Below are positions 2,416 to 64,000 of a DNA stretch of 64,000 nucleotides, in pieces (the first letter of the stretch is position 1; every line of letters starts with the position of its first letter). The notes below the pieces were generated by a model. It made no database searches. It saw only the letters and a program-made list of their open reading frames with translations, and had not been told where the DNA came from. This DNA is from Ectocarpus siliculosus (Eukaryota > Sar > Phaeophyceae > Ectocarpales > Ectocarpaceae). The stretch is taken from assembly GCA_000310025.1 (NCBI GenBank), contig FN649727.1:3927655-3991654 (forward strand). Direction: 5' to 3'. Position numbers and translations under genes: made by a program.

Positions 2416-4937
2416 AAGAAGAAATAGGGGAACGTAGAGAAGTCTTCAAGCAATACCTGGGTGAGGGGTCTGAAGAGAGTTGGGAAAAGTACAGGGCCAA
2501 GAGGAAACAGGTGAAGGGACTAGTGAAAAAGAAGAAAAAGTGCATTTGGGACGAAGTAGTGCAGAAGGCCAACGGAGGCCTGGAGGGGAACGCCAAGCAG
2601 ATGTGGGAAGGGATTAGTGGGATGGTAAAAAAGACCGCGCAAGGGGGGGATACAGGGGTAGCAACATTGCGAGGTGTGAACGGTGGACTAGTCAGCAGTG
2701 GGAAGGGAAAAAGGGAAGTTCTAGCAGGACACTACAAGAGACTTGGAGTGCCTTCGGAGAATGAAGATTTTGATCAAGTGTTTAAGAAGGAGGTGGACGC
2801 ATGGGCCCAGAAAGAAGAAGAGACATCGAAGGCAGACGTTGGGAACGTAGAACTAGAAAAGGAGTTCACTGAGGACGAGGTTGAGGCGTGTGTGAACAAG
2901 CTGCAGTGCCACAAAGCAGCAGGGGCGGATGGGACAGTCAACGAGTTCATGAAGTTTGGGGGGAAGGGGATGATCCAGCTGATGGTACTCCTGTACAACT
3001 GGGTGTGGAAAAACGAGTATGCGCCAAGTAGATGGAGGGAAGGAGTGGTTGTGAACTTGTTTAAGAAAGGAGACAAGACTGACCCAGGAAACTACAGGGG
3101 TATCACACTGTTGAACACAGTAGGAAAAGTGTTTTGTAAGCTGCTGAACGATAGGATAGTGGGAGTAATGGAGAAGAAACGTAGCATTAGTGAGGGCCAG
3201 GCAGGTTTCCGACAGAAGAGGGGGTGCGTAGACCACGCATTCACGGTAGGGAGAATCATCCAAGGTAGAAAGAGGGCGGGAAAGCGGACGTACTGCTTCT
3301 TCCTGGACGTGAAAAAGGCATACGATACCGTATGGAGAAATGGGCTGTGGAAACAATTGTCCAAGTACGGGATCAAGGGGAAAATGTGGAGAGTGCTGAA
3401 GAAGATGACAGAGTGTACGAAAAGCGCGGTCATGCTAGACGGAGAACTTTCTAAATTCTTCGACATTGAGCAAGGGGTCCCACAAAGTTGCACGCTGTCC
3501 CCAACATTGTTCCAGGTGTTCATCAACGATCTGTTGGAAGTCGTAGAGGCAGTCCGGAAGGGAGTAAAAGTAGGGGACACGGAAACTTCGGTGTCAGGAA
3601 TGCTGTTTGCGGATGATCTTGTTGGTATGTCGGACACCCCTGAGGGACTGCAACTGCAAGTTGACGCGGCGAAGAAGTTTACTGATAAGTGGAGATTGTC
3701 TGCCAACGTTACGAAGAGTGCCGTCATGGTATGCAACGAGGGCAGGGAGGAACCAGTTGAACATAGATGGAAGTGGGGCATCGAGGAGATTGCAGTAGTG
3801 GACCAGTACACATACCTCGGAGTAGAGATCGCAAAAGATTGCTCGTGGAATACACACATGTCCAAGGTAGCGGAAAAGGGCAAAGCACGAGCAGGGAAGC
3901 TGCACCCAATACTCGCAAACCGGCACCTTGATACACGCATCAAATTAACGGTTTTGAAGAGCGTAATCGTACCGCCGCTAGAGTACGCCGGAGAAGTATG
4001 GGAAGGAAATAAGAAGGCAGTGAAAGAACTCGAGGCGGCGCAGATGAAAGCAGCGAAAATCATTCTAGGATGCTCCAAGCGCACAAGTAATGCAGCAGTC
4101 AGGGCAGAATTGGGGATCCAATCCCTACGGTCGGGAAGAGACGCAAGGAAGCTGACATGGCAGTATCGCATGTGCGGGATGGGAGAGGAGAGATTGCCGA
4201 GAATAGTATGGGAGGCGAAGTGGGCAAACAAAAAGAGGGGTAGACAACCCACGGAATGGGTCAAGGTTGTAGAGGACGTATGGAAGGGATTGGACATCGA
4301 CGAAGATGAAACGCTGGAAACGGAGGGTCTACAGGGGTTCAAGAAGAAGATATCTGTTGCTTGTGCCGAGAGAGAAGAACAGAATCTAAGGAAAGAATCC
4401 AAGGATAAGGAGGGTCTAGAAGTGTACGGAATGTTGAAAGAAGGACTAGGGTTCAAGGATTACCTACATGGACCAATGGATGCAGGGACAAAGCTTAAGG
4501 TCAAATTCAGGACCGGGGACATAGGCCTTCGAGAACGTCGACGAAGATATAGGACGGTAGACGACGAAGACGACAAGTTCAAATGTGATTGCGGCTTCGA
4601 ATGCGAAGACAGTGTTCATGTAGTCGCGGAATGTCCGTGGTACGAAAAGGAGAGGTACATGACTGAGCTGGGAAAAATACAAGGGACGTACAGGGAGATG
4701 TTTGAGGCATGGAATAGGGAGGAGAGGACGGTAGCGGTACTGGGGAGTAGAAAGTGGTTTGAAAAGGCGGGAAGGGACATCGTTAGGATAGACAAACTAG
4801 GGAAGACATTTTTGAGCCACCTTTGGCAAAGTAGGAAGGAACGATTGGCCATCGGTGATCGGTCCTGTGGGAACAATGCTCCGTCCTCTCGAGGACGCGT
4901 GGTCAATGGTCTAACCGCTAAGGCATGCAAAACATAA
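2397..4937 (+). CDS. LINE A ORF, reverse transcriptase half
   Basis: The frame encodes about 845 residues of a LINE reverse transcriptase. Ordered blocks are visible: the KAAGADG block, NYRGITLL, GQAGFRQKRGC, FFLDVKKAYDTV (first catalytic Asp), QGVPQSCTLSPTLF, and FADD (residues about 403-406, the catalytic Asp pair). Near the C-terminus a CDCGFECEDSVHVVAECPWY stretch forms a CxC..H..C motif typical of LINE C-termini. There is no ATG at the junction: the frame opens after a TAA at 2394-2396, and its first usable codon in a relaxed start model is GTG. This argues for a frameshifted continuation of the endonuclease frame rather than an independent gene. All RT motifs are intact. Confidence 0.9.
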   Translation, partial: AVGDELKEEIGERREVFKQYLGEGSEESWEKYRAKRKQVKGLVKKKKKCIWDEVVQKANGGLEGNAKQMWEGISGMVKKTAQGGDTGVATLRGVNGGLVSSGKGKREVLAGHYKRLGVPSENEDFDQVFKKEVDAWAQKEEETSKADVGNVELEKEFTEDEVEACVNKLQCHKAAGADGTVNEFMKFGGKGMIQLMVLLYNWVWKNEYAPSRWREGVVVNLFKKGDKTDPGNYRGITLLNTVGKVFCKLLNDRIVGVMEKKRSISEGQAGFRQKRGCVDHAFTVGRIIQGRKRAGKRTYCFFLDVKKAYDTVWRNGLWKQLSKYGIKGKMWRVLKKMTECTKSAVMLDGELSKFFDIEQGVPQSCTLSPTLFQVFINDLLEVVEAVRKGVKVGDTETSVSGMLFADDLVGMSDTPEGLQLQVDAAKKFTDKWRLSANVTKSAVMVCNEGREEPVEHRWKWGIEEIAVVDQYTYLGVEIAKDCSWNTHMSKVAEKGKARAGKLHPILANRHLDTRIKLTVLKSVIVPPLEYAGEVWEGNKKAVKELEAAQMKAAKIILGCSKRTSNAAVRAELGIQSLRSGRDARKLTWQYRMCGMGEERLPRIVWEAKWANKKRGRQPTEWVKVVEDVWKGLDIDEDETLETEGLQGFKKKISVACAEREEQNLRKESKDKEGLEVYGMLKEGLGFKDYLHGPMDAGTKLKVKFRTGDIGLRERRRRYRTVDDEDDKFKCDCGFECEDSVHVVAECPWYEKERYMTELGKIQGTYREMFEAWNREERTVAVLGSRKWFEKAGRDIVRIDKLGKTFLSHLWQSRKERLAIGDRSCGNNAPSSRGRVVNGLTAKACKT

Positions 4938-15606: not shown

Positions 15607-18600
15607 CTATGCCACTTGTTCTTCTGCCAGCTCCCCCTCGCCGACGACCCAACCGGCGTCGGACAACTTCTGAGCCGCCTTGTCACGATGTGTCAAGTTT
15701 GAGACCGTAATGCCCCTTTCCCGACAAGCCTTCCTTAGTTTGTTACCGCTCCACGTGCGATGTTCATGAGCAGTTAGCTTCCGGTGCTCCACGCCCGTCG
15801 CCGCCCCCGTCGCCGCCCCCGCCGCCGCCCCCGCCGCCGCCGCCGCCCCCGCCCCCGCCCCCGCCCCCAACCGCTCGAACACCGCACCGGCCATCGGTAA
15901 TATGGAGGCAGCCGACATCTCTTCCCAATAACGCTTCAAGTGTGATCGATCGATGGGGTTGAAGCTGTAGTTATACTTGCTGGGTTGACCGGTGGCTGCC
16001 ATGGTGTGGAAGACCTGGCCTAACATGCTGTTGTATTCCGCGGCAGCAGCCTCCCACACCTCTTCGCCTCGCAGACCTGTCGCCTTCGCCGCCCCAAAGG
16101 CAGCGCATGCAAGCTTCTTGTCGTCCGCTGTAGCAGGCATCGCAAACTTATCAGTCAACGCGGAGGCCCTCCTGAACTTGGTTACCCTCCCCTGCCCGTC
16201 TCTCGGTCCAGCCACCTCCCTCACGCCCGCCGTCTGCCCCATCGTAGGTGCGGCGTCATCTCTCGAGGTCCAACTCATCCCGCTCGCTCTCGGCCCAGCT
16301 CGAGTATCTGCTGGGGAGGCCGCCCTTGCTGCCGCTCCTGCGCCAACTGTCCCGCCCGTCCGAGCCGCTGCAGTGGTGGTCAGGGAAGAGGGCAACAGAG
16401 GGAAAATGAAGGGAAGGAAGGTGGGAGGGCATGCCGAATCGTGAGCCGATGGTGAGGCGTGGCGGCGTGAGGGGCGAGACGGAGGGAAAATGGAGGGAGG
16501 GAACAAAGGTGGGAGGGCATGCCGAATCGAAAGCCATTGTACGCTATACGCGACGGTCTCAAACAGATGCCTATCGTCCATCAAAAGCACCTGGTCGCTT
16601 TCCAAGGGCTGTTGCGGATGCCATGGTAGAGCCTGCTCTGGTGCTCCCCGCCCCCATAGAGGCTTCGTTTTCCGTCGTAGTAGCTCTCGGGGCACCTGTT
16701 CCGCTTCCCCCCACAGCGGTGCTGTCCCTTCCAGCAGGTGCCAACCCGGTCACCGCCATCCCGCCCGCACCTGACCTAACATTGCCCCCAGCTCCGGCAA
16801 TGCGTTCGGAACCTCTTCCCCCATGCCGTCCAAAAGATATGGACGCCACACCTGAACTTGTTGCAGGCGCAATCCTAACTTGCGTCTGTTCTCCTTCACG
16901 TTCGAACTTGTTCTCCCCTGACAAAAGCATGGGCAAACACAACGCTAGTTTGTACGTGGACATGGTGCTCTACTCGATGTTGTTTTTGGGTTCTTTCCTA
17001 ACGCCGCCGGCAAAGAAAACGAACCTGGCAAGGGGTCTTCCCCAGACACTGCTGGTAAGGCGGCGGCACTTATCGAACTCCAGTCCATCCGGTACTTCTC
17101 CGCAACCTCCTTCGCAACCTTGTCTTGGTCCAAAGAGAGGTAGTCGTACCCCATCAGCTCCATATCCTTTTCCTCCAACTGGGTTAGCGAAAGAACAAAT
17201 CAGGTTGAATACGGGAACGGACAACAATCAGGTGGTTGCAGACGGGGACGACCTACCGTGAGTGCATTGACTGTGTTTCAACCCTAGTCTGTTTCNNNNN
17301 NNNNNNNNNNNNNNNNNNNNNNNNNNNNNNNNNNNNNNNNNNNNNNNNNNNNNNNNNNNNNNNNNNNNNNNNNNNNNNNNNNNNNNNNNNNNNNNNNNNN
17401 NNNNNNNNNNNNNNNNNNNNNNNNNNNNNNNNNNNNNNNNNNNNNNNNNNNNNNNNNNNNNNNNNNNNNNNNNNNNNNNNNNNNNNNNNNNNNNNNNNNN
17501 NNNNNNNNNNNNNNNNNNNNNNNNNNNNNNNNNNNNNNNNNNNNNNNNNNNNNNNNNNNNNNNNNNNNNNNNNNNNNNNNNNNNNNNNNNNNNNNNNNNN
17601 NNNNNNNNNNNNNNNNNNNNNNNNNNNNNNNNNNNNNNNNNNNNNNNNNNNNNNNNNNNNNNNNNNNNNNNNNNNNNNNNNNNNNNNNNNNNNNNNNNNN
17701 NNNNNNNNNNNNNNNNNNNNNNNNNNNNNNNNNNNNNNNNNNNNNNNNNNNNNNNNNNNNNNNNNNNNNNNNNNNNNNNNNNNNNNNNNNNNNNNNNNNN
17801 NNNNNNNNNNNNNNNNNNNNNNNNNNNNNNNNNNNNNNNNNNNNNNNNNNNNNNNNNNNNNNNNNNNNNNNNNNNNNNNNNNNNNNNNNNNNNNNNNNNN
17901 NNNNNNNNNNNNNNNNNNNNNNNNNNNNNNNNNNNNNNNNNNNNNNNNNNNNNNNNNNNNNNNNNNNNNNNNNNNNNNNNNNNNNNNNNNNNNNNNNNNN
18001 NNNNNNNNNNNNNNNNNNNNNNNNNNNNNNNNNNNNNNNNNNNNNNNNNNNNNNNNNNNNNNNNNNNNNNNNNNNNNNNNNNNNNNNNNNNNNNNNNNNN
18101 NNNNNNNNNNNNNNNNNNNNNNNNNNNNNNNNNNNNNCCCAGTCGGGCGGCGCAGTCGGGAGGTGTGCGCGTACGGACGAATCTCCTGTAGTGGCTGTTC
18201 CCAGCCAGAGCCATAGCCTCCTCTGCGTTGACGCCCCTGTTGTTGATGATGTAGGCCGCCACGCGGTGGACGTCCGGCTCGTGCTTCGCTGCGATGCAGG
18301 TGCCGACCTCCCTGACAAACAGCAAGCGGCGACGTCAAAGAAAGAACGCGAGCAGGGGGGTGAAACGGGCAATCGTGACCTACGTTTGTCGCTACCATCG
18401 ACGTCCGTGGATGGGTCATTGCACCCGTCGTGTGTGCCCTACTACAACACCTCAGTTAGCTTTACCAATCACCGAGACGATACGAATCGCAACATTTCCA
18501 TGCAGTCGAAAATCTATCCCCTTTTCCGCTTTCGATTTACCTGGATAGTGCGGCGTGGAGAGGGTGTGCACTCAGTGTGTGGGTGGAAATAATCTGGACC

Positions 18601-47957: not shown

Positions 47958-50900
47958 GCCAGAGCGCCCTCACCATTCCCATGAGCTGGAGGGCGTCGGA
48001 AGTCATCTCCGCCTCGAAGAGCCCGATGTTCGCCGCCGCGGCAGCCAGGACCACCCACACCCCGAGCCAACGCCCCGTGATCGCCTCCGCCACCTCCGCA
48101 AAGTACCCGTCCTCCCACAGGGACCACCGGCCCCCCTCGCCGGCGCTAGCCGCCGCCGCCGCAGCAGCAGCAACGGACGCCGCGCCGGTCCCCACGAAGA
48201 TCGGCAAGCCGTAGCACAGGACGACCAGGGCCACGCAGGCGACCAGGGCGCGAGGGTACGTCCTCCCCGGGTTCTCCACCTCCCCGGCGAAAGAAGCCGC
48301 GCTGTCCCAGTAGTTGAGGTTCCTGGGAGCGTTTTCGCGGGGGGAGATCGTCGGTGGCATAGATGAGGGGAACGTCAGCACTACGAAAAAAACATGTCTC
48401 TTCCGTGTGTTAACATTTTTTGGAACGATACTTCTGTACCACCATATTTTCGCCCGGGAACAGAGCAACGTGTCGAACCGGTGCAATATCAGAAAAGCTC
48501 GACCGCAGAGCCAGCCAACCGTCGGAGCGAGAGAACACCCAACCAAGCAGTTTGCAACCAAATGCACGCGTGACGGACACGTCAGATCATCGCGCAGAGG
48601 AAAAGCGCGCTCCAACAGCCTGCCGTAGGGAGACACACGCCGCACGCTCCTCCGGGCGTGCTATTGACCGTTCTACGGGCGGACACTCCCTGCCTCAGAG
48701 CTCGAGCTTGTGTTCTTGTTGGCAAGTGATTGCACACCTTGTTCGCAGGTGGTAATAACTCAGCGTTCGCCTCACCAGAACATGACGTTCAGATACGTCC
48801 CCCATCGTATCGCTCCCCAGCCCCCGTCTGGCGGAGAGATCCACGACTCCGGCATCGTGCAGTCCGGAAGCCCCCACAGCACGAGAACAACGAACGGGAG
48901 CAAACTGAACACCGCCACCGCTATGGCGGTCCGTCCTACCACTCTGGAACGTCAGCGCGTGTTGCAAAACGGTGGCGGCGACGGCGGCGACGGCGGGTGG
49001 AGGGCACGCGAGTGTGGACATTTTATACACCCCAAGCCCATCGGTGAGCATCGGCTATGGTGATGCTGCGCTATAGTCTTAGTATAGTACGCCGAGCGAA
49101 TCACACCGGAGAGTAATGGTGCCGATATATCGCGGTGTAGTAACAGAAAAAAATCACGGCGTTATATCGAGACCTGCGCTATTGGGGGAAGGTCCCTGAA
49201 CAGCTAGGTTGTTGTGCCAAGGAATCATTTCCGCAACACACCCGCGCTACCGTACCTAAGGCCCCTGTAGGCCAAGTAGGAGAGGGCTAGGTTGAGGCAG
49301 ACGACGCAGCCCCACCGGCCTAACCCGTCCTCACGAAGAAAGTTGTCTCTGGGAAGCAGGCTCACAAGGTAGTCGAGGAAGAGAACCGGATCTACCATGG
49401 CGGTTGGGACCGGTTGTTCGCGCAGCGGGAAAGACACCAGGAGGAAGATGGGCAGGGTCATGCTATAGAAGAGGGCAACATGAGACGTTGTAGCGAAAAA
49501 GTCATTTGTCATCTGGCAGCAAGTGGGGCCCACCATTGCGAACGCTTTCGCGACATGCTTCCGGTGCTCTAAACGAAGAAGCAACGCGCTTGAACGACCA
49601 ATGGTAAGACACAAAAAATTGACACCGATTCCACCGTGCGGGCCTAAATGCCAAAGGCATACACAAAAAAATCTTCCCGATGAAAAGCAGCGCACGATTA
49701 AGCCACCGAAACGCCATCAAGGTGAATAGCGGTGCAGACAAGGAGATGGCTGCTCGGCCGCGCGACTCACAAAGACTGTTGTCTGCGACGCCGGACATCC
49801 AGCTGGCGTAGCCCTCCATCCACCCCCAGAACGGGCCGAAAGCTGTTGAGACCTGCAGACCGCCACAAAAGCAGAGAGTGAATAACCGAACAAGGGCAGG
49901 TGCTGACAGCTCGGAGAAACCAGTAGCAACCGGCGTAGCGGTTGTCCTTTGCCAAGAGGGTGCCCTATCTACAACGCGACGAGAAGATACAAAAACCCAA
50001 AGCTTGATGCATCACGTGTACCACACAAGCCATCACCTGGATTGTGCTTCAGCGTCGCTGGTCTTGGGTTGAGAGAAGGTGGGTAGGACGACATGGTTCC
50101 TTTTGTCACGCCACGGCAAAGTCAACGTCAGCGACGGCGGCACACCAAAATAAAGGGACGGCAAACACACGCACACCAAAGACACCCGTATATCGTCAAA
50201 CCCACTCGGGCGGCACGTACCCATGCCACACACCCCGCGGCTTCCGGAAAGGTTGTAGAGAGCTCCGCGGTGACTAGCGCCTCGGGGATCGACCAGACCA
50301 TAGGAAGGAACAGAAAGCCCATGAGAGCTAGAAACGGTCCCGCCGCCGACACGACCGGCTCGACGCCGAAGGGCCCACCGCTAACACCGTAGAAAATAAG
50401 TAAAACTAGGGGCTGCACGTGTGCGTAGGGCAGCGAAGAGAGGGGGGGGGCGGCGTACTCTTTATGTTTTGCATGCCTTAGCGGTTAGACCATTGACCAC
50501 GCGTTCTCGAGAGGACGGGGCATTGTTCCCACAGGACCGATCACCGATGGCCAATCGGTCCTTCCTACTTTGCCAAAGGTGGCTTAAAAATGTCGTCCCT
50601 GGTCTACCTACTTCATGTAACGATATATCCCTTCCCGCCTTTTCAAACCACTTCCTACCCCCCAGAGAGGGGGGGGGGGGGTTAGGGGATCATGAGAGAA
50701 CGTTAGAAAAGGAAAGAGAGGGGGGATGGGAGAAAATGAGACAGAGACACACGGATAGAGATGGAACCGGAGGGGGGGTTCTGTCAGGAGTCATGGCATG
50801 AACGTGTTTCGTTGTTATCGGGAGAGAGCTTCCCTCGAGACAGAAGATCTGCCGCGGCAGCGTTACAACTGACCGATCACCTCATTCATACTCTGCCTTT

Positions 50901-53424: not shown

Positions 53425-56279
53425 ATAGCAATGAGAATGCCTACTACGTGCTGTAGTTCCATCGATCGTGCAGCAGCACTGCCACCTGCTATATAATTCA
53501 GGAGTCGCCGCTTTTCCCTGCGACGAACTTGTGCTGGATGAGGAAGGTCATCACGACAACTCTTCGCTATTAGATGATTATCAAAACCGTTCGCTTGTGT
53601 ACGATACCACAGCTTTCATTGGTGCGTCACGGTGTGCTTAACGAGCAGCAATATGAGTTTGCTCGAGGCGAAGGCAGGAGCTGCGGGTTTTGGTCCCTCA
53701 ATCGATCAGTACACAGTCTATCGAGGCCATCACTACCACCCACCCCGTTTCGCACACACGAAACGAAGCGGGGGGGTAGAGATAGTACCTCCGGAGTATG
53801 GCGGCCGTATGTTTGTACCTCGGGCGCATCCACGGGTGGCCTTGTCGCACAAGGTGTGTGTGCAACGATAACGTCTAGCGATCCAACAACATGTAGATGC
53901 TAGATGATACACACACGACATAATCATGTTCAATTCGGTTCCGGAAGGGTCAACGGGTTGTTGAACAAAATACTCATGTCTCGGTCTTCGCCCAACATTC
54001 TTCCACTCACCATCTTGCTTCGAATATACTACTTGTAGAAGCCCAACCAACTCGCGCACAACCTACGCATGCTTGTACGTAGTGGTCAAGCAAAACAAAA
54101 TTCGCGAGAATAGACGCTTGCACACAGGGTGCACAGCTAATTGTGTTCCAACGCCAACAATCAAACACTGGCCTGAAGGCTCCAAGTGTCATGCAAGCCC
54201 GCCTGCAGTGAGATGCGTCTGAAACAGCCTTGCTTTCGACATGAAAAGTGTGCCTGCTGCTACCGGCACAGTGGAACAAAGTAGTATCTATATCTGTGGT
54301 CATTGCGTTGCCTCATAGCGTACGCCGCAGAAGCACTGGGTTGGGAGATGGGGGTACGGAACATTTCCAGGAAATCTCCGAGGGGCCGACAACGGCTACG
54401 CAGGTGGCCAGAGAGCACCACTTATTGCATCCACGATGAGTAGTTCTTGCAATGTAAAGCTGGGTTTTCACACCGTCGGAAAGCTCTGAGGAGCTTGTAC
54501 ACATACATGTACAATACATACAAAGTCTACATATCCCACCTACGAGGGGTTCTTCGCGACCGGAGGGAGCCTCAAAAGCAATATGCCATACAAATTCTCG
54601 GAGAGCGGCGGATAAGGCTATCCCCTCCTTAGTGGAACACGTACGTGTTGTTAGTGAACGCTCGCGGATTTCTGGGACACGGGCACATCCAGAACAATAT
54701 CGTCTCTTCGCCAATGGGCGAAGTTTGGCGGTTCCTGGGTCATCCGGCGAGACTGGGACCCTGCCTGATCATGACCGCGGATTGTATATGCGCATCGGAG
54801 GATTGTACCGACAACACCCCTTAGGCTGCTACGTTGTTGTCCAGGACCGAATTCCTATGCTGTGGTCGTGGGGGTGAGCGGTCAAACCAAGCCCTCGAGG
54901 GTCGGTATGATGGCTTTCGAGGGTCGGTCTGGTGCGTCTCAAAATCGCGCCCGTTGGCGAACTGCTTGCTGCTACTGCCGCCAACCCTGCCCCGAGGGAC
55001 CGGCGATCGGGGATTGTAGCGCTCAGAACCAAACTCGTGAGGGTGGCCGAGCGCATCCATCGGACATTCACGGAGCGGCGAGCGAAGTGGGCGTGCTCAA
55101 ACGAGCTTCGTTGGAGTTGGTGAGCACGGGTTGCGAACTGTACCCGAATGCGGGTTGCGAACCGTACCCGAATGGCCGGTCAGTGGTGATTGCTGTCTCA
55201 AACCAAGCTCGCTAGAGTCCGTACGCTACGGCATCATCAGCAAGAGGAGTAGCATGATGTGTTGCACCGGCACACAACTGCTGCAGGCGACACGCGCGTG
55301 CATTCAGCGGTACTATGTTAACTGCATACGACTAGTCTAGATGGTCTAGATGATATTTTGCGATTGATTCCGAACACCGGGTAGTAAGCACAGAGGAGGC
55401 CTAAGGGGTCCTAGGCAAAATCTGCTGGTGCAGCAGCAGATAACAATGAATCCTGACGACCAACACCATGACACTGCAATGGCGTTACAGCAACAGTGGG
55501 GCGACAGACAATGGGCGGGGGGGCGGAAAAACCGAAAAAGCCACCCATTATTATCTGCCGCCAAAACCAAGTAAATGTGGTATCTTGTTGGTTGAGGGTA
55601 CGCAAGAGGTTTTTTTCTCTCGAGAGCGCACGAGAGGGAAACGAAAAGCACAGGGACAGGATTGCCTGAAGCAAACTCCACGATTGTATGCCCGGACTCG
55701 CATGCTGCCGAGCTTAGATCATCAGGCGGCGACAAGTGTGGGAGTACATACAACACAATCCAACTTCGAAAAGCTGTATCTGGATCCAATGATACATCCA
55801 TACCTGCTCCACTACAATTAACATGCAAACATGCATGCGCGCCAAAACCCAACTTCAACAAGCTGAGCTTTCGGCGAAGAAAAAGGGGGGCTATGTGGAG
55901 GTCAGGATATGGAGATTCAGGGAGCACAGATACACGTACATAAAGAGTAGGATCTGAGAGGATATGTGATAATAGATTATTACCGTTCTTCGAGGGTCTA
56001 TGACTCTTACGATTCCCAACGGCTGCGAAGAGTTGATGAATCTTTAGGAGAATGGGAAAAGGGTCCACGAAGGCTCGCCCACTCTCCTCGCCACCCTAGC
56101 TTGACTGAGTTCGCTCGGTCACGCTTGGCATTCCTCGCCACATTGCACCAAAGGAAATAGCCAACCTCCGGTGGCAGGACATAGCCACCACACTCCCGGA
56201 CTCTCTGCTCAGCCAGAGTAGAGGGCTTCCATATTGGCGTTCGACGACGTGTTCTATCTTTGCAACCCACGTGTGAAAC
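53425..56279. other. Gene-free stretch
   Basis: No gene is recognised. A GTG-started open frame at 54932-55123 has a coding-like Arg/Ala-rich translation but no ATG and no family signature; it may be a transposon remnant. A tandem pair of about 22 bases (GGGTTGCGAAC(T/C)GTACCCGAAT) lies at about 55129-55173. Confidence 0.35.
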
Positions 56280-57251
56280 ATGGGGTCCAAAGGAGGAAAG
56301 AAAAAGGTCGGAGGGTCGCAACAACAGCAGCAACAGCTGAAAAAGCAAAAGTCGCTGATGCCCAAACAGCAGGCGAAGCCGCGTCCCGACGCTGCTGCGC
56401 CTACCCACCACGGCTCGGCTAAGCCCCAAGAGGGACAGCCGACGCCGTCCCAAGCTGGGGACACCGCTGGTGCGGCTTCGAGCGTAGCACCCTCGCAGAG
56501 CAGTCACCGTGGCGGGTACTTCCACGCTTTGGTGGGTGAAAGTCGTGACAGCGACAACAACAGCAGCGCTGGCGATGGCGCCCAGGCTGTCACCACCCGA
56601 CACCACGACACCGACCCGCAATCCGACGACAACGATGACGACAACGACGACGACGCCGTTGGCGGCGACGACGTCGACGACGACCTCGCGCAAGACATCC
56701 TGCGGAACCGCGCAAGCGCCGCAAGTCAGCAGAGTGCCTCGCTCCTGGCAAGCGGCGGGCCGCTGGAAGCCGTTCTCGTCGGAGCGGTCACAAAGGCAGT
56801 GAAGGCGGATAAGACCCCGCCGGCATGGGTCCTCAGCATGCTCATGCCGGGAGCCGTCCACCAGCACGACATTCAGCAGGTGAATCCGCGTTCGCTTGCC
56901 TCAGATCTAGAAGCAGAAAATCGTTCTGGTGGTATGCGCACGACAGCAAGTGTTCAACAGACCCCTGCTCAGAATATGTCTACACCGACAAATTCATCTA
57001 TTAACCCGGTACACCAAAACACGGTAAACCAGGCCTCACCGAACCAGGTAAACCAGCAAACGGTAAACCCAGACAACCCTACCCCGGTAACCCAACCCAC
57101 GGTCAACCAGGACGTGATTAGCACGGCACGGTTTACTTTGAAAGCCAATGACCTACCTCCTGATCTCAAGCTCGAGGGTTGTTGTTGTTGTCTTCACATT
57201 AAAAACCGTTCCGATCTCTCTATACCCAGTACCTTCGTATGTCCGTACTGA
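56280..57251 (+). CDS. Gag-like N-terminal frame in inverted arm 1
   Basis: ATG to TGA, 323 residues. The translation is low complexity: Lys/Gln-rich start, Asp/Asn-rich middle (about 115-140), then an Asn/Gln/Thr/Pro repeat of QxTVN type (VNQASPNQVNQQTVNPDNP, about 240-275), then TARFTLKANDLPPDLKLEG. The last piece resembles the segment that precedes the core of Ty3-type gag proteins, and a gag-core-like frame lies at 61682. I infer this is the N-terminal part of a gag gene cut off from its core. After LKLEG the frame runs into the noncoding inner part of the arm. Confidence 0.5.
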   Translation: MGSKGGKKKVGGSQQQQQQLKKQKSLMPKQQAKPRPDAAAPTHHGSAKPQEGQPTPSQAGDTAGAASSVAPSQSSHRGGYFHALVGESRDSDNNSSAGDGAQAVTTRHHDTDPQSDDNDDDNDDDAVGGDDVDDDLAQDILRNRASAASQQSASLLASGGPLEAVLVGAVTKAVKADKTPPAWVLSMLMPGAVHQHDIQQVNPRSLASDLEAENRSGGMRTTASVQQTPAQNMSTPTNSSINPVHQNTVNQASPNQVNQQTVNPDNPTPVTQPTVNQDVISTARFTLKANDLPPDLKLEGCCCCLHIKNRSDLSIPSTFVCPY

Positions 57252-57464
57252 TCCAACGCTCGACGCGGTCGATTCCCGTGGTCACAGGTTAACTTACCCT
57301 AAAAAGGTACACTCAAATAAACTGGCCCCGAGGGGTCCGCAAGTCAATAGAAATCAACGACAGATATTCTGGAATCCTCCACTCCCTCTTCGCGCTATGC
57401 GAGGTATCAACTGAGACTAGCAGTCACTATCTATCATGGGCCGGAGAGAAAGAGGTACACCCCC
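56296..57464 (+). repeat. Inverted arm 1 (1,169 bp)
   Basis: Nearly identical, in reverse orientation, to 62547-63716. Differences I saw are one single-base insertion in arm 2 and about five substitutions. The outer 880 bp is the gag-like frame; the inner roughly 290 bp is noncoding. The outer boundary falls inside the gag-like frame, 16 bases after the ATG. The inner boundary is a run of five C at 57460-57464. Confidence 0.95.
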
Positions 57465-57812
57465 TTGGTTCAATCTTGGTATTTCACAACGCAAGCAGAG
57501 ACAAGGCCATCTGGCACAGAAAAAGAGAGAAAAAAAAGAAAAAAGAAAAAAAAAATGGAAACCGTACAACAAGGAGAAGAGGAAATAAAATGAAAATAAA
57601 ATGAAAAAGGGCGAGGACAAAGAGGGACCAGGCCGAAAATAACAAGAAGTATGAGGCAGAACAAGGCACACGGTGGAGAGACCACTGACGAACAAGCAAA
57701 CACGCAAACATGGCCACCAACCAGCGATACATTGTAATGGTACGAAATCACTACTACTGGGGGGTTGGTGCAATGGTGCAGCGTTGGGGGGGGGGAATTG
57801 GCTAAAAGAAAT

Positions 57813-59972
57813 TCAATCCGGCACGTGTCGTGCCACTCGGTCCGTCTCTTCTCGTTTGCTTTCTTCCCTCGCCTTCTCGTCCGTCTCCTGCCCCCCTCCC
57901 GCCCCATTGGTTGTTGGCTTGTGGTTTCGTTTGAGCGCTCGTTGTCGGCTGGCCTCTTCTTCCTTCTCGTGCCAGGAGGTCATGAACCTCTCAGCTCCCT
58001 GCAGCACCGCCGCATGCCAGGGTACTCCCTCCTCCACCTTCGCGGCTTCCGTCCACCTTAACTTCGGTGCCGTGTCTTTCGGTACGGGAATTCCGAGACA
58101 ACATGGGTCGGTTTTCGTAGATCCGTGGTCGGCCCCGAATGCCTTCAGGTCGTCGAGCACACACTTCGGCCAGTTCTGTTCCTGTGCCCCCCTACGTGGC
58201 TTCTCCCCCCCCGCCAGCTCGCCGAGCATCAGTCGTTTCGGGAGTCGCCCGTCCGGCTGCCTTGCCAGTGCTCCCGCGAACAGTAGGCGTCGTTGTCGGA
58301 TCGTGGCTTCAACGCTCTGGCATTCGACCCTCTTCAGCGTCTGGGCGTACGAGAGCTGCCGGTAGGTGTCTTTCTTGCGCTTGTACCCGATAACTCGAAG
58401 GAGCAGTCGGTGGTGTGTCGACCGCAGCGTCTGATAGTGGCCGCTGAGTGGTGACCATGTCATGCAGCCGTACAGCAGTGCCTCCATCGCCTCCGCCTGG
58501 AGGAGGCGGATCTTGAGTCGGAATGGCGCTTTCGGTCTGTCGAAGAGCTCCTGGCCATATCGCCTGAGGCACGCCCACGCTCCTCTGCTCCTGTAGCTGA
58601 TCTCCCGGGTGAGGTCGCCATGTGCGTTGACGAGGCCACCGAGGTACCGGAACTCGGTCGTCTGGGCGTATTTCTGTCCCGCGGCTTCAATGGTCAGTGG
58701 TGGAGGAGGCGGGGGGGGCTGTGATGTTGCAGTCGGCTTGTCCTTCGCGCGCATCAGGAGCGTCTCCGTCTTCTCCTCGGACACCGTTAGCCCGAACTCC
58801 CCGAACACCTCAACGATGATAGTCATCATTCTCGCCAGTCCTTCTGCAGACCTCGATACGACGCCGGCATCATCGGCATACAGCATCCCCCATGCTGCCC
58901 TCCGTACTCGGTCAAGGGGTGTCTCCTCCCCCCCCCCCGCTTCCGTCTTCCCCTCCTCCAAGCACACCAGATTCCGCAGGACAACATCATCCTCGCTGAA
59001 TCGGATAACGACGACCTCGAGGACCTCGGCGAAGAAGATGTTGAACAGCAGTGGGGATAGCACATATCCTTGTCGCACGCCCTGTGTGACGAAGAACCAG
59101 TCCGATAGTTCTCCGTCGTCCATGCGCACCCGGGCCCGTATTCCATCGTGGAATTGGCGGATGACTTTGATTAGCGTCGCGGGAATCCCAGCCCTGGCCA
59201 GCACCTTCCATAGCATCTCTCGGTCTACCGAATCATACGCCTTCTTCAAGTCGACGAAGCACATGTAGGGCGGTATTTTCTTTCTCCGCCCCAGCTCCTG
59301 GAGGCGGCGCACGACAAACAGCATGTCGACGGTGGATTGCCCGGGTCGAAATCCGCACTGTTCCTCCGGGAGGATGTTGTTGGCTTCGCAGAAGGCGCTT
59401 AGACGGTTGGTGATGATCTTGATGGGGACCTTGCCTACGTGAGATAGTAGCGAAATCCCCCTGTAGTTGTTACAGTTGGACCGGTCACCCTTCTTGTACA
59501 GCACCTTGATGGTTGCGTCCTTCCACTCTTGGGGGATATCTCCTCCGTTCCACACCTTGACGAGGATGGTGTGGACGTGTCTCAGGACAACGGGTTCGTC
59601 GTCATCGATCTTGAGCAACTCGGCAGGGAGGGAGTCGTGGCCGGGTGCCTTCCAGTTCTTGAGGCCTTTCGCTGCCCGTGCCACCTCCTCGAGGTCTGGC
59701 ACCTCTCCCAACCGTTGAGTGCCACGTGTCGCTGGCCGCTGCGTCACTCGTTCGATGATGTCTGGGTTCAGGGTGGGGGATTTGGTGTTGAGTAGGGTGC
59801 TGAAGAATCTCGCCCACCGTTGGAGGATGTCGTCCCTGTTCCGGAGCAACACGCCGTTCTCATCCGCGACGCACGGCTGTCCCCCCGCTTGTCTCCCGCT
59901 GAGGCCCACTGATCTCTTGAGGTGTTGGTACAGTCCTCTCACATGTCGCGATCTTTGTAGATTGCTTCGAGT
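57813..59972 (-). CDS. LINE B reverse transcriptase
   Basis: About 709 residues from the first relaxed start (GTG at 59942); the frame is open from 59972. Blocks in order: KAPGHDSLPAELL, NYRGISLLSHVGK, EEQCGFRPGQSTVDMLF, FVDLKKAYDSVDR (catalytic Asp), QGVRQGYVLSPLLFNIFF, YADD (about 355-358), and a C-terminal domain with LFAGALARQPDGRLPKRLMLGE and RGAQEQNW typical of RTE/CR1-like LINE C-termini. The frame overlaps the endonuclease frame by 34 bases in -1 phase and has no ATG at its start, so expression needs a frameshift, reinitiation, or an ancestral single frame now broken. Confidence 0.9.
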   Translation of the reverse strand, partial: TRSNLQRSRHVRGLYQHLKRSVGLSGRQAGGQPCVADENGVLLRNRDDILQRWARFFSTLLNTKSPTLNPDIIERVTQRPATRGTQRLGEVPDLEEVARAAKGLKNWKAPGHDSLPAELLKIDDDEPVVLRHVHTILVKVWNGGDIPQEWKDATIKVLYKKGDRSNCNNYRGISLLSHVGKVPIKIITNRLSAFCEANNILPEEQCGFRPGQSTVDMLFVVRRLQELGRRKKIPPYMCFVDLKKAYDSVDREMLWKVLARAGIPATLIKVIRQFHDGIRARVRMDDGELSDWFFVTQGVRQGYVLSPLLFNIFFAEVLEVVVIRFSEDDVVLRNLVCLEEGKTEAGGGEETPLDRVRRAAWGMLYADDAGVVSRSAEGLARMMTIIVEVFGEFGLTVSEEKTETLLMRAKDKPTATSQPPPPPPPLTIEAAGQKYAQTTEFRYLGGLVNAHGDLTREISYRSRGAWACLRRYGQELFDRPKAPFRLKIRLLQAEAMEALLYGCMTWSPLSGHYQTLRSTHHRLLLRVIGYKRKKDTYRQLSYAQTLKRVECQSVEATIRQRRLLFAGALARQPDGRLPKRLMLGELAGGEKPRRGAQEQNWPKCVLDDLKAFGADHGSTKTDPCCLGIPVPKDTAPKLRWTEAAKVEEGVPWHAAVLQGAERFMTSWHEKEEEASRQRALKRNHKPTTNGAGGGQETDEKAREESKREETDRVARHVPD

Positions 59973-61681
59973 TCAGTCACATATCCGTCCAGGTGGGCAT
60001 AAATGCCCGTTTCGACTGCTGTAGCCACTCCCTTACACGCTGCTTTGAGAGTTCTCCACGTTGCTGAGTTCCAGTTGCCCCTCATCGCCCGGCGCGCTTC
60101 CCGCCGTTTGGTAAGGGCCTCCTCCAGTACTGCTCTCGTCTCTGGGGTCTCACACCACTCCTGCGTGCGGCGTCTCCGCGGTTCCTCCCCTAGGGTCGTC
60201 CGCGCTGCTTCGAGGAGAGCATTGGTAAAGTCGGTCGCCGATTCCGCGTCGGTGGTTGTTCGCTCGTCCAGTCGTGTGTCGAGGTTGAGGAGGAACCGAT
60301 TAGTCACCGCACCTCGTGCTGCTTCGAACTGCAATTCCCGTCGGTTGAATTGCTGCTGTTTCGGTTTAGTCCGGACTGCACGGTTGTGGGCAAGCCTGCT
60401 ACCGAGGTTGACGGTGGCTACTACCATGTTGTGGTCTGAGTCTGCTTTGACTGGGCGAACCGGCTGGGGGATGACAACCACGTTAGATACTCGGCCGTGA
60501 TGTGCCTGCCTTGTCAGGATGTAGTCAAGGCGCTTGCAGTCGTTTCCCGACACACCGTTGTATGTGTGCCATATTCCGCCCTTGCGTGTCTCGAAGAACG
60601 TGTTCGTGAGAGCTAGCCTGTTTTCCGTTGCGAAATTCAACAGTAGCATGCCATTGTCGTTGAGCTCATCACGCCCGTACATTCCTATTACCCTTCCGTC
60701 CCCTCCGTCCAACCTATCTCCCGTCCGCGCGTTGGCGTCCAATAGGACATACACACATTCTTTGGAAGGGATCCTCCGCACGAGACTGTCAAGTTTTCCC
60801 CAGAACACGCGCTTGCTGTCGGCGGTTGAAGGTTCGGTTGGAGTATACGCGGCTACGAAGTTGACCGCTCCACGGTGGCCTGCCAACAGAAACCTCATGG
60901 CCATAAGGCGTTCGTCGATGAACTCCGTAGTGAACGTGGATGTCTTGCACAGTGACTCTTTGACGGCTATCCCCACACCATGGACTCCACCAGTCTCCGT
61001 GCCACAGCAGAACACCCGGAAACCCGCTGCTGCAAATTCCGTTCGACCTGCCCTCCATGTCTCCTGTATTCCTACCACCGATACGTTTTGTCTCGCTGCC
61101 TCGTGTAGAATGCTGTAGGCTCGCCCGTATCCATTGGCCCCGTTCACAGCCAAAGTCCGCACATTCCAGGTTGCTACCCTAAGAAGTTGACCCTGCTGTC
61201 TCTTTCGCGCGGCGCGCGTTGCTCTCTTAGCTAGCCTACGCGCCGCCCGACCCCTCCTTCTCCTCCATCTCCCCCTCTTTTTTTGTTTTTTTGCTATTTT
61301 TTTGCGAACACTCGGGCTAAGATGATACAAGTTATCCCGGTTCTTGCCTTGTTTCCCATAGAGTTGTCTTCTTGTCCCGGAGCGGTGTGGCCCTCCATCT
61401 CTGGACTCTCTCCTTTCCTCTCTCTGGGGCATACCCCCACGGCGTGCGGTCACTCCGCCACCCTCACCGTGCTCTCTGCTGCTGCATAACCCCGGTGTCC
61501 AAGCCGGGGCGTTAGGATCCAGCCTTATTTTGCAGCTACCAAACAAAGCTGGCGGTTCACGAGCTACCCCGATCTCACGACGGCAGTAACTCCCAACCGC
61601 CAAACTCAGGATCCCCCTCTCAACAGTGCTAGGGACCGTATATCCGTCTTTGCTGGGTGGTCTTTCGAGGTCTAGATCCAC
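59939..61681 (-). CDS. LINE B endonuclease
   Basis: Endonuclease/exonuclease/phosphatase domain preceded by a very basic segment (about 126-161, RWRRRRGRAARRLAKRATRA). Motifs: RVATWNVRTL (WN about 172-173), VVGIQETW, LLDANARTGDR, the KRLDYILTR block and DSDHNMVVATV. The listed first codon is GTG; the first ATG (61432) gives 497 residues beginning MPQREERRES and keeps the basic region and the full nuclease. The frame ends ...YKDRDM then TGA, exactly where the RT frame takes over. Confidence 0.9.
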   Translation of the reverse strand: MDLDLERPPSKDGYTVPSTVERGILSLAVGSYCRREIGVAREPPALFGSCKIRLDPNAPAWTPGLCSSREHGEGGGVTARRGGMPQREERRESRDGGPHRSGTRRQLYGKQGKNRDNLYHLSPSVRKKIAKKQKKRGRWRRRRGRAARRLAKRATRAARKRQQGQLLRVATWNVRTLAVNGANGYGRAYSILHEAARQNVSVVGIQETWRAGRTEFAAAGFRVFCCGTETGGVHGVGIAVKESLCKTSTFTTEFIDERLMAMRFLLAGHRGAVNFVAAYTPTEPSTADSKRVFWGKLDSLVRRIPSKECVYVLLDANARTGDRLDGGDGRVIGMYGRDELNDNGMLLLNFATENRLALTNTFFETRKGGIWHTYNGVSGNDCKRLDYILTRQAHHGRVSNVVVIPQPVRPVKADSDHNMVVATVNLGSRLAHNRAVRTKPKQQQFNRRELQFEAARGAVTNRFLLNLDTRLDERTTTDAESATDFTNALLEAARTTLGEEPRRRRTQEWCETPETRAVLEEALTKRREARRAMRGNWNSATWRTLKAACKGVATAVETGIYAHLDGYVTELEAIYKDRDM

Positions 61682-62584
61682 TTGCGGAACCTCGGCCTAC
61701 CCCAGGGACGGGGGGGGCAGGCCGGGGAGGACAGTATGCCTCACGAAGATGTTCCGGAAAAAATGGCACTTTACAGGGCACACATCGGTCTGTTGTCCGC
61801 CGACAACGTCTCTCAAAGTACAATCGATCACCGCGCAATCAAACATCTCGCGCTATTCGTGCGAGGTGCAGCAGCTCAAAGCCTCAGCCTCATGATTAGC
61901 TCATCTCTCGAATGGCGACCGCCAGCTCAGCTAAATGCGTTGCGTGCATGTGTGGAAGTGGTCCGCATCACACCTCCGAAAACATGGAAGGAGTGGGTCA
62001 CGGCTTTCACCACATCGTTCGCTCCCGCCAACCGAATTGCTCTTCTTGCACATGATGTCATGAAATTAGAAGCAAAGACTAGCGAATCAGTTGACGTGTT
62101 CGCGCTCCGAGTATCACGCGCGTATGCCAGACTTCTAGCCGAAGCCGAACGCACAGCTCCGCTGAATGAACCACCTCATGAACACGCGTTCAACCAAGCT
62201 CTCACCGCCTCTTTCGAAAACGGTGTACACCTACACATCCGCGTAGAGATGATGCGGGCAGATCCATCCGATTCTTTCATGGAATCTAAAGCGCGTGCTC
62301 GTCGACACGAGTCCAATAAACTGCGCTCGCCCGCTACCCCCATCTCGGCTACCGCCTCCACCGTGTACGGTTCTGCTCGTTCCGGGCAGCTCCAAACGAC
62401 CGCACATGACAACCGCGACCGTATTTCTGCACTGGAAAATTATATTTCCGGGCAGGAGGCGTTTGTGTCCAGCGGTGGAGCATACAGCGCACAACGCGGT
62501 GGGCGTCCTCAGCGGGGGACCGATAAACGGGACCGAGACAGTACCAGGGGGTGTACCTCTTTCTCTCCGACCCATGATAGATAG
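61682..62584 (+). CDS. Gag-core-like open frame joined to arm 2
   Basis: Open frame of about 300 codons; the first codon is TTG, the first ATG is in SMPHEDVPEKMALYRAHIG. The middle part resembles the core of LTR-retrotransposon gag proteins: ALYRAHIG, HLALFVRGAAAQSL, KTWKEWVTAFTTSFAPANR, then KLEAKTSESVDVFALRVSRAYARLL. The C-terminal part is Arg/Ser/Gly rich, and no CCHC knuckle is reached because the frame runs into arm 2 at 62547 and stops within 12 codons. It is therefore a truncated gag fragment. It may be the continuation of the gag N-terminus found in arm 1, separated by LINE B. Confidence 0.6.
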   Translation: MRNLGLPQGRGGQAGEDSMPHEDVPEKMALYRAHIGLLSADNVSQSTIDHRAIKHLALFVRGAAAQSLSLMISSSLEWRPPAQLNALRACVEVVRITPPKTWKEWVTAFTTSFAPANRIALLAHDVMKLEAKTSESVDVFALRVSRAYARLLAEAERTAPLNEPPHEHAFNQALTASFENGVHLHIRVEMMRADPSDSFMESKARARRHESNKLRSPATPISATASTVYGSARSGQLQTTAHDNRDRISALENYISGQEAFVSSGGAYSAQRGGRPQRGTDKRDRDSTRGCTSFSPTHDR

Positions 62585-63716
62585 TGACTGCTAGTCTCAG
62601 TTGATACCTCGCATAGCGCGAAGAGGGAGTGGAGGATTCCAGAATATCTGTCGTTGATTTCTGTTGACTTGCGGACCCCTCGGGGCCAGTTTATTTGAGT
62701 GTACCTTTTTAGGGTAAGTTAACCTGTGACCACGGGAATCGACCGCGTCGAGTGTTGGATCAGTACGGACATACGAAGGTACTGGGTATAGAGAGATCGG
62801 AACGGTTTTTAATGTGAAGACAACAACAACAACCCTCGAGCTTGAGATCAGGAGGTAGGTCATTGGCTTTCAAAGTAAACCGTGCCGTGCTAATCACGTC
62901 CTGGTTGACCGTGGGTTGGGTTACCGGGGTAGGGTTGTCTGGGTTTACCGTTTGCTGGTTTACCTGGTTCGGTGAGGCCTGGTTTACCGTGTTTTGGTGT
63001 ACCGGGTTAATAGATGAATTTGTCGGTGTAGACATATTCTGAGCAGGGGTCTGTTGAACACTTGCTGTCGTGCGCATACCACCAGAACGATTTTCTGCTT
63101 CTAGATCTGAGGCAAGCGAACGCGGATTCACCTGCTGAATGTCGTGCTGGTGGACGGCTCCCGGCATGAGCATGCTGAGGACCCATGCCGGCGGGGTCTT
63201 ATCCGCCTTCACTGCCTTTGTGACCGCTCCGACGAGAACGGCTTCCAGCGGCCCGCCGCTTGCCAGGAGCGAGGCACTCTGCTGACTTGCGGCGCTTGCG
63301 CGGTTCCGCAGGATGTCTTGCGCGAGGTCGTCGTCGACGTCGTCGCCGCCAACGGCGTCGTTCGTCGTTGTCGTCATCGTTGTCGTCGGATTGCGGGTCG
63401 GTGTCGTGGTGTCGGGTGGTGACAGCCTGGGCGCCATCGCCAGCGCTGCTGTTGTTGTCGCTGTCACGACTTTCACCCACCAAAGCGTGGAAGTACCCGC
63501 CACGGTGACTGCTCTGCGAGGGTGCTACGCTCGAAGCCGCACCAGCGGTGTCCCCAGCTTGGGACGGCGTCGGCTGTCCCTCTTGGGGCTTAGCCGAGCC
63601 GTGGTGGGTAGGCGCAGCAGCGTCGGGACGCGGCTTCGCCTGCTGTTTGGGCATCAGCGACTTTTGCTTTTTCAGCTGTTGCTGCTGTTGTTGCGACCCT
63701 CCGTCCTTTTTCTTTC
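62547..63716 (-). repeat. Inverted arm 2 (1,170 bp)
   Basis: Reverse-oriented near-copy of arm 1. The boundary to the gag-core frame is a run of five G at 62547-62551. The outer boundary at 63716 is flanked by sequence unlike that beside arm 1, and no target-site duplication was found at the outer ends. Confidence 0.95.
62760..63716 (-). pseudogene. Gag-like N-terminal frame, frameshifted copy
   Basis: Same protein-coding sequence as arm 1, on the minus strand, but an extra A at about 63361-63363 in the GAC-repeat region shifts the frame. The original ATG lies outside the arm and is absent. The copy is therefore non-functional as a continuous gene. Confidence 0.8.
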
Positions 63717-64000
63717 TGTTGGAGTATTTGTGTACAAGAACGACTGGTTCTACTGCATGGGTTCTGTGCAGTATTGTGAAGGCGTGTTTCCAAGTCTGTA
63801 ACCGTCAGGTGAAGACAGCTTGGGCGTCTGAGTGTGGATAATAAATCACTCTGTGTTTACCCTACCTACACCTCGCATGAACAACGCCAGCAGTTCGAGA
63901 GGACAGCGTCCCTCGCTGCACAGCGTGAGCCACTTCGCCCAAAAGGTTATGAGCCTCGTGGTAGGTATACCACATCGAGTCACAATGTCCTCCGCCAATC
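63717..64000 (+). other. Right edge, possible partial coding region
   Basis: Two + frames stay open to the window end. One begins with an ATG at 63877 (MNNASSSRGQRPS ...). The other, open from about 63823 after an AAGACAG acceptor-like site, reads RQLGRLSVDNKSLCVYPTY and on to QREPLRPKGYEPRGRYTT. Neither is recognised, and at most one is real. Confidence 0.25.

What the first reader, a model, noticed from the sequence alone, without database searches (positions are those of the whole stretch)
56296..63716. Near-identical 1.17-kb inverted arms enclosing a LINE and a truncated gag frame
Arms at 56296-57464 and 62547-63716 match over their whole length in opposite orientation with one indel and about five substitutions seen. 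The 5.1-kb centre holds an intact-looking minus-strand LINE and a gag-core fragment that ends abruptly at the arm 2 boundary. LTRs are direct repeats, so this is not a normal LTR element. Possible explanations are a Foldback-like or other long-TIR transposon that captured gag sequence, an inverted duplication made by template switching or break repair in a nested retrotransposon, or an assembly artefact. High identity means the duplication is recent or kept by gene conversion.
Basis: partly seen in the sequence, partly recalled or inferred. Interest (0 to 1): 0.75.

Follow-up and report, generated by a model that had tools for sequence, protein, structure and literature searches.

The report
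Scrambled nested retrotransposon with inverted duplication
A jumping gene (LINE) landed inside an older jumping gene, and an error of DNA repair or replication, probably at the LINE's own cut, pasted an upside-down copy of the join nearby; it looks like a repair scar and not a new kind of transposon.

Summary
The inverted arms are real and far beyond chance, but they are not the ends of an element. Each arm is the junction between the N-terminal gag of a Ty3/gypsy-type LTR element and the last 287 bp of a LINE that is inserted, antisense, in that gag. No other scored place in the genome has this junction (40 of 2143 candidates scored). Both arms share a LINE base absent from 16 of 16 scored sister copies, and a shorter tail than any of them, so arm 2 is a copy of arm 1. 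Both arms have since gained private mutations, which argues against a misassembly. Arm 2 does not end at 63716: a 2.2-kb LTR element with a 5-bp target duplication sits there, and the arm continues for 167 bp into inverted LTR. A second, LINE-less copy of gag follows, starting within 0-5 bp of the LINE insertion point. Best reading: repair or replication template switching in a nested retrotransposon, probably begun at the LINE's own cut ("adjacent parallel breakpoints", PMC12807874). Foldback transposon: rejected. Artefact: unlikely. Interest is modest.

The parts
55765..55893 (+). B: 3' internal end of the Ty3/gypsy-type element, with a purine tract, just before an LTR
   Evidence: matches copies that carry this stretch before their 3' LTR (L005:8371-8836; LTR edges)
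55894..56234 (+). C: LTR (about 341 bp) with 3' internal sequence on its left and gag on its right
   Evidence: no other match listed spans both sides
56235..57177 (+). D: 5' internal region and N-terminal gag; host of the LINE insertion
   Evidence: 92-95% to L002-L005; contiguous with the gag core in relatives
56133..57464 (+). arm 1 in its true extent (1332 bp): LTR end + D + 287 bp of LINE 3' end
57178..61731 (-). full-length LINE (4554 bp), endonuclease + RT, (AAC)4 3' tail on its sense strand; EN and RT frames separated
57813..59972 (-). LINE reverse transcriptase ORF (719 aa)
   Evidence: RVT_1 E=1.1e-33; nearest solved chains by sequence: 8c8j (RNA-directed DNA polymerase) and LINE-1 ORF2p
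59939..61696 (-). LINE endonuclease ORF (585 aa)
   Evidence: Exo_endo_phos E=1.1e-11
61734..62541 (+). F: gag core continuing after the LINE
   Evidence: 25 (C131) to 42 differences in 807-808 bp to seven relatives, in which it directly follows D; Retrotrans_gag weak, below its cut-off
62547..63716 (-). arm 2, first part: inverse of 57464-56296 (LINE 3' end, then gag N); 62542-62546 is the junction zone
   Evidence: shared LINE base and tail
63717..64000 (+). start of a 2.2-kb LTR element inserted in arm 2 (5' LTR 63717-63942; the element ends at about L001:2423); TSD CTTTC
   Evidence: beyond it arm 2 resumes at L001:2429-2595, then gag copy F' at L001:2596-2722

Best explanation
A LINE inserted by target-primed reverse transcription into the gag of a Ty3/gypsy-type element. 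At that cut, or at a break there soon after, repair did not simply close the gap. Both broken sides exist in two copies: the left side (LTR-gagN-LINE 3' end) as arm 1 and inverted arm 2, the right side (gag core) as F and F'. One right copy (F) is joined to the LINE 5' end. The second left copy, cut back to 1.33 kb, was pasted inverted between the end of F and the start of the second right copy (F'), using short microhomology. This fits replication of the two ends of a LINE-made break followed by joining of the sister ends (breakage-replication/fusion), or an equivalent template-switching repair on the sister chromatid. A 2.2-kb LTR element later inserted into arm 2. Shown: the composition, order and junctions, the single origin of the arms, and later independent mutations. 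Inferred: that the LINE cut started it, that sister chromatids were the partners, and that the right edge of F' (61860-equivalent joined to unique flank) is a further deletion of the same or a later event.
For: The gagN|LINE junction occurs only in the two arms among the matches listed. Both arms have a LINE base absent from 16 of 16 copies and 4 GTT units where the 16 have 5 to 14. Arm 2 runs past the LINE 3' end into gag and LTR. F' starts at the LINE insertion point (0-5 bp, within CGAGG) and has the LINE-less form of that site, GAGGGTCTGCC, as in 6 of 7 relatives printed. F and F' are each other's nearest: 2 differences in 127 bp, against 4-5 to each of the seven relatives that cover at least 124 bp at 96-97%. 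They share three bases that no relative has together; C131 has two of the three. Microhomology CGAGG at the LTR-inverse/F' join; CCA, less cleanly, at the F/LINE join. The flanks of the 16 other LINE copies shown differ, so site preference does not explain two breakpoints at one site. d/L as in PMC12807874 is 5/808 = 0.6%. That paper reports adjacent parallel breakpoints at cuts made by the human L1 enzyme (passages).
Against: The coincidence was noticed after the fact and is one locus; that paper also sets adjacent short insertions apart from parallel breakpoints as a different process. F' is only 127 bp long and then changes to unique sequence, which needs a further deletion or junction. F' is short, so its kinship to F rests on few sites. 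The breakpoint at 56133 in the LTR has no explanation. The F/LINE join has two unmatched bases before CCA and was compared with one relative only (C131). No LINE cleavage motif was sought, and no target duplication is seen at this insertion (three other full-length copies looked at show short ones at best). Simultaneity of insertion and duplication cannot be dated with these data. Among the scored LINE places no comparable inverted copy lies beside another LINE, apart from a 126-bp piece at C489 and shorter ones at C15 and C107.
Confidence: 0.5

Rival explanations
1. Replication-based template switching (MMBIR-like) some time after the LINE had inserted: a polymerase stalled in gag at 62541, copied the LINE end, gag and LTR on the opposite strand (57464 to 56133), jumped to a LINE-less gag template (homologue or other copy) for 127 bp, then to the right flank.
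For: Microhomology at the two testable junctions (5 bp clean, 3 bp less clean), templated pieces of 1332 and 127 bp, local source of the long one.
Against: Leaves unexplained why F' begins exactly at the LINE insertion point and in LINE-less form.
Confidence: 0.33
2. Arm 2 is a second, 5'-truncated LINE insertion with 1.05 kb of 3'-transduced flank (inverse gag and LTR), copied from the RNA of this LINE and inserted at the same site of a neighbouring tandem copy of the LTR element, with a deletion between the copies.
For: Arm 2 read on + is LINE sense 3' end followed by its 3' flank, with 5' truncation in the LINE. The LTR at 55894 has 3' internal sequence on its left, as in tandem or circular copies.
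Against: Needs a second insertion within 1 kb of its source, at the same site, on the opposite strand, by a LINE whose other 16 flanks show no site preference. The transduced end has no tail of its own.
Confidence: 0.08
3. Assembly artefact (hairpin or chimaeric join).
For: No reads are available; an N run begins about 6 kb beyond the window's end (L001:6463).
Against: Both arms carry private substitutions (3 in arm 1, 2 in arm 2), and arm 2 has 4-bp and 1-bp insertions. Arm 2 alone holds an LTR element with a 5-bp target duplication.
Confidence: 0.06
4. Foldback-like or other long-TIR transposon that captured gag.
For: Long, nearly identical inverted arms.
Against: Arm parts belong to an LTR element and a LINE; no second copy of the composite among scored places; the outer ends lie inside an LTR; no transposase match in the four window frames searched.
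Confidence: 0.01

Closest known systems
Breakage-replication/fusion with adjacent parallel breakpoints (Zhang et al., Nat Genet 2026, PMC12807874; abstract and passages seen)
   Same: Two breakpoints of the same orientation within 0-5 bp at a LINE insertion site; short inverted and direct segments of 0.1-1.3 kb chained at the junction
   Different: There: human cells and disease genomes, with read evidence. Here: one locus in the assembly of an unnamed eukaryote, sister origin inferred
L1-mediated fold-back inversion and other L1-associated rearrangements (PMC7058536, PMC10191854; passages seen)
   Same: Inverted duplication next to a LINE insertion; PMC10191854 reports short foldbacks upstream of the target site in 3 insertions (0.3%), and one more with both a foldback and an inversion
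   Different: Those foldbacks lie upstream of the target site, with about 52-220 bp of extra synthesis; here 1.33 kb carrying the LINE 3' junction lies 0.8 kb beyond the LINE 5' end
MMBIR templated insertions (PMC2621351; search listing only)
   Same: Microhomology and local templates
   Different: Does not predict the shared breakpoint at the LINE site
Foldback (FB) transposons (recalled)
   Same: Long inverted arms around a loop
   Different: Arms here are pieces of two other families, one locus

Membership tests
Foldback / long-TIR DNA transposon | Arms are the element's own termini and recur in several copies | tested here: not met
   Composite arm at no other listed place; its parts are gag/LTR and LINE 3' end
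Foldback / long-TIR DNA transposon | Target-site duplication at the outer arm ends | tested here: not met
   Arm 2's outer end runs through an inserted LTR element into inverted LTR and joins gag; arm 1 continues into its LTR
Ty3/gypsy LTR retrotransposon (host element) | LTRs, gag, pol order RT-RNaseH-integrase | tested here: met
   Met in relative L005. The local copy keeps only B, one LTR and part of gag
LINE (non-LTR retrotransposon) | Endonuclease and RT domains, simple-repeat 3' tail, many copies with one 3' end | tested here: met
LINE (non-LTR retrotransposon) | Target-site duplication at this insertion | tested here: not met
   No duplication between CGAGG and F; three other full-length copies show short repeats at best
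Breakage-replication/fusion | Adjacent parallel breakpoints | tested here: met
   F and F' begin within 0-5 bp of each other in gag
Breakage-replication/fusion | Breakpoints come from replicated sister ends in one event | not testable with these tools
   Needs intermediate alleles or population data
MMBIR / template switching | Microhomology at junctions and templated pieces | tested here: met
   CGAGG clean, CCA less clean; 1332- and 127-bp pieces. Outer left and right junctions not testable without the empty site

The most novel reading that the evidence does not exclude
A natural, inherited scar of a LINE-made double-strand break in which both broken ends were duplicated before joining. It would place retrotransposon-triggered breakage-replication/fusion, described in the paper seen from human cells and disease genomes, in the ordinary genome evolution of another eukaryote.
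Probability: 0.4. Interest if true: 0.45.

Novelty: new member of a known kind. Interest (0 to 1): 0.3.

Why it matters
Long inverted repeats in repeat-rich DNA are easily taken for new transposons or for assembly errors. Here family-by-family dissection turns one into a readable history: LTR element, LINE insertion, inverted templated duplication, small LTR insertion. If the LINE cut caused the rearrangement, it is a sequence-level example of how retrotransposition itself makes inverted duplications. That could be tested by scanning LINE insertions for second breakpoints at their target sites.

Tried and rejected
Independent second LINE insertion for arm 2: rejected as a simple explanation, because the same insertion point, the same 4-unit tail and the same rare LINE base are in both arms. 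One exact match to that stretch elsewhere (C10) proved to be a distant relative, 85% over 100 bp.

Site-specific LINE targeting: not supported; the flanks of the 16 other copies shown differ.

Other LINE places with nearby extra pieces (C489, C15, C34, C107) were fetched. C489 has a 126-bp, 94% inverted LINE piece with a different order of parts; C15 and C107 have only shorter inverted matches (up to 73 bp); C34 has none.

Empty site: no second copy of the left flank (54800-55764, 40 of 120 candidates scored) or right flank (L001:2723-4200, 40 of 55 scored) was found, so no empty site could be compared. The two flanks are not alike.

Dating the LINE insertion against the duplication from LINE body divergence was considered and not done: the other long matches differ by about 2-8%, which would mostly reflect source lineages.

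The host was not identified. A paper on Ectocarpus transposable elements (PMC12477816; passages) was looked at on a guess and not used.

Rows dropped: 1 of 17 LINE 3' ends (L015, no anchor). In one search, 10 relatives were entered, of which 9 (F against F'), 7 (F) and 6 (gag N) passed the length filter; one search repeated the key sites with 12 relatives. In one search one of seven relatives (C131) showed the F end by exact anchor. Fetched but not analysed: L027, L029, L036-L040, L048.

It replaced 'at least 5' by 5 to 14 tail units, widened the relatives at the arm differences to 7-8, and showed that C131 shares two of the three F/F' bases, so the kinship of F and F' is put more cautiously.

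Full report
Observation. In 20 shuffles of the 10-kb region the longest exact inverted match was 16 nt. In the whole window, with a 20-nt seed, the only other inverted pair of at least 80 nt is 149 nt long and 45 kb apart.

What the parts are. The window lies at G000:C2:3927655-3991654, in a 189-Mb assembly of 492 contigs. In one search (40 of 2143 candidates scored) the first 884 bp of the arm match nine other places at 92-95% over most of their length, plus partial matches at C458 (95%) and C19 (77%). The last 287 bp match 27 other places at 98-99%. No listed place but the two arms has both. The 287 bp are the 3' end of a LINE: with a longer query, 38 of the 39 other long matches begin at exactly 57178 (40 of 2168 candidates scored), and most matches at its 5' end stop at about 61731. 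Full-length copies at up to 97% exist (37 of 809 candidates scored). The LINE is antisense, with Exo_endo_phos and RVT_1 domains; by sequence its RT is nearest to 8c8j and LINE-1 ORF2p among solved chains, with R2 weaker. Its two frames are separate here, whereas the two other copies looked at read across that point, so this copy is not intact.

The 884 bp are the N-terminal gag of an LTR element. In relatives such as C131, C17, C20 and C492 it is followed directly by the gag core found at 61734-62541. The gag core is thus the other side of the LINE insertion, not a captured fragment. A relative (L005) has RT, RNase H and integrase in Ty3/gypsy order. The local LTR, 55894-56234, is preceded by 129 bp of 3' internal sequence ending in a purine tract and followed by gag. 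No other match listed spans both sides, so it resembles the joint of a tandem or one-LTR circular form. From 54800 to 55764, and from L001:2723 to 4200, the sequence matched only itself among the scored candidates.

Beyond the window. From 63717 a different repeat begins. It is a 2.2-kb element with 226-bp LTRs (one mismatch in the 226-bp alignment; three in 229 when the uncertain last bases are added), flanked by CTTTC on both sides. Two of its frames had no Pfam match. After it, arm 2 resumes as the inverse of 56300-56133, ending inside the LTR. Directly after that comes a second copy of gag core, F', on the + strand, 127 bp with two differences from F. It starts at GTCTGCC, after CGAGG. In the seven relatives printed the uninterrupted gag reads CTCGAGGGT(C/T)TGCC (C in six), and in the window the LINE sits between CGAGG and GT. 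F' therefore has the LINE-less right half of the LINE's own target site, and its left breakpoint is within 0-5 bp of the LINE insertion point.

One origin, then independent mutation. Against 16 other LINE 3' ends (17 fetched, one dropped), both arms share one base that none of the 16 has and 4 GTT units where the 16 have 5 to 14. Arm 1 has one private base there and arm 2 two. A distant LINE elsewhere has the shared base in an 85% match. In the LTR/gag part (1045 bp) the arms differ at two bases. At these, arm 2 has the state of 8 of 8 and 7 of 7 relatives that cover them, so arm 1 changed; arm 2's 4-bp and 1-bp insertions are absent from 8 of 8 covering relatives each. So arm 2 was copied from the LINE-bearing arm 1, and both have mutated since: five substitutions in about 1.33 kb. 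This fits two real copies and gives no sign of continuing homogenisation. F and F' differ at 2 of 127 bases, against 4-5 to each of the seven relatives that cover at least 124 bp at 96-97%. They share three bases that no relative has together, though C131 has two of them. This makes a common local source likely, on few sites.

Mechanism. The locus reads: unique flank - B - LTR - gagN - LINE(-) - F - inverse(LINE 3' end, gagN, LTR end) - F' - unique flank, with one later LTR element in the inverse part. The LTR-inverse/F' join has a clean 5-bp microhomology, CGAGG. The F/LINE join has CCA in common, preceded by two bases that fit neither side, judged from one relative. Simple template switching after the LINE insertion explains this, except that F' begins exactly at the LINE site without LINE sequence. 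Zhang et al. (PMC12807874; abstract and passages) describe adjacent parallel breakpoints, breakpoints derived from replication of one DNA end, and report them at cuts made by the human L1 enzyme; they also link chains of short insertions (0.1-1 kb) and inverted duplications to the process. Their d/L estimate for independent origin is here 5/808, about 0.6%, though they treat adjacent short insertions apart. I therefore favour an origin at the LINE cut, at about even odds. It is one locus, the coincidence was seen after the fact, and the right edge of F' needs a further deletion. PMC10191854 reports short foldbacks at 3 insertions (0.3%) (passages), and PMC7058536 describes L1-mediated fold-back inversion (passages).

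Novelty. Each step is of a known kind. Six literature searches listed, in titles and starts of abstracts, no description of this arrangement in a comparable natural locus. The library is partial, and I saw passages of only four of the papers listed. A Foldback transposon is excluded and an assembly error is unlikely; only long reads can settle the latter.

Noticed in passing
55765-56280: One LTR with 3' internal sequence and purine tract on its left and gag on its right, as in tandem copies or an integrated one-LTR circle; no other match listed spans both sides.
   Followed up: partly
63717 to L001:2423: 2.2-kb LTR element with 226-bp LTRs, 5-bp TSD CTTTC, no Pfam domain in two frames tested; several relatives at 87-98%.
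   Followed up: partly
59939-59972: The LINE's endonuclease and RT ORFs overlap in different frames; two other copies read through, so this copy is probably frameshifted.
   Followed up: partly
L041:1469-1803 (G000:C489): A 126-bp, 94% inverted piece of LINE 3' end lies beside the 3' end of another LINE copy.
   Followed up: partly
4789-4937 and 50462-50610: 149-nt inverted pair, 94% complementary, 45 kb apart.
   Followed up: no
L001:4190-5140: Frame in the right flank reading, by eye, like a GTP-binding (guanylate-binding-protein-like) domain, perhaps with introns; recalled motif, not tested.
   Followed up: no
17296-18137; L001:6463-9946: Runs of N (gap or withheld) in the window and beyond its right end.
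   Followed up: no
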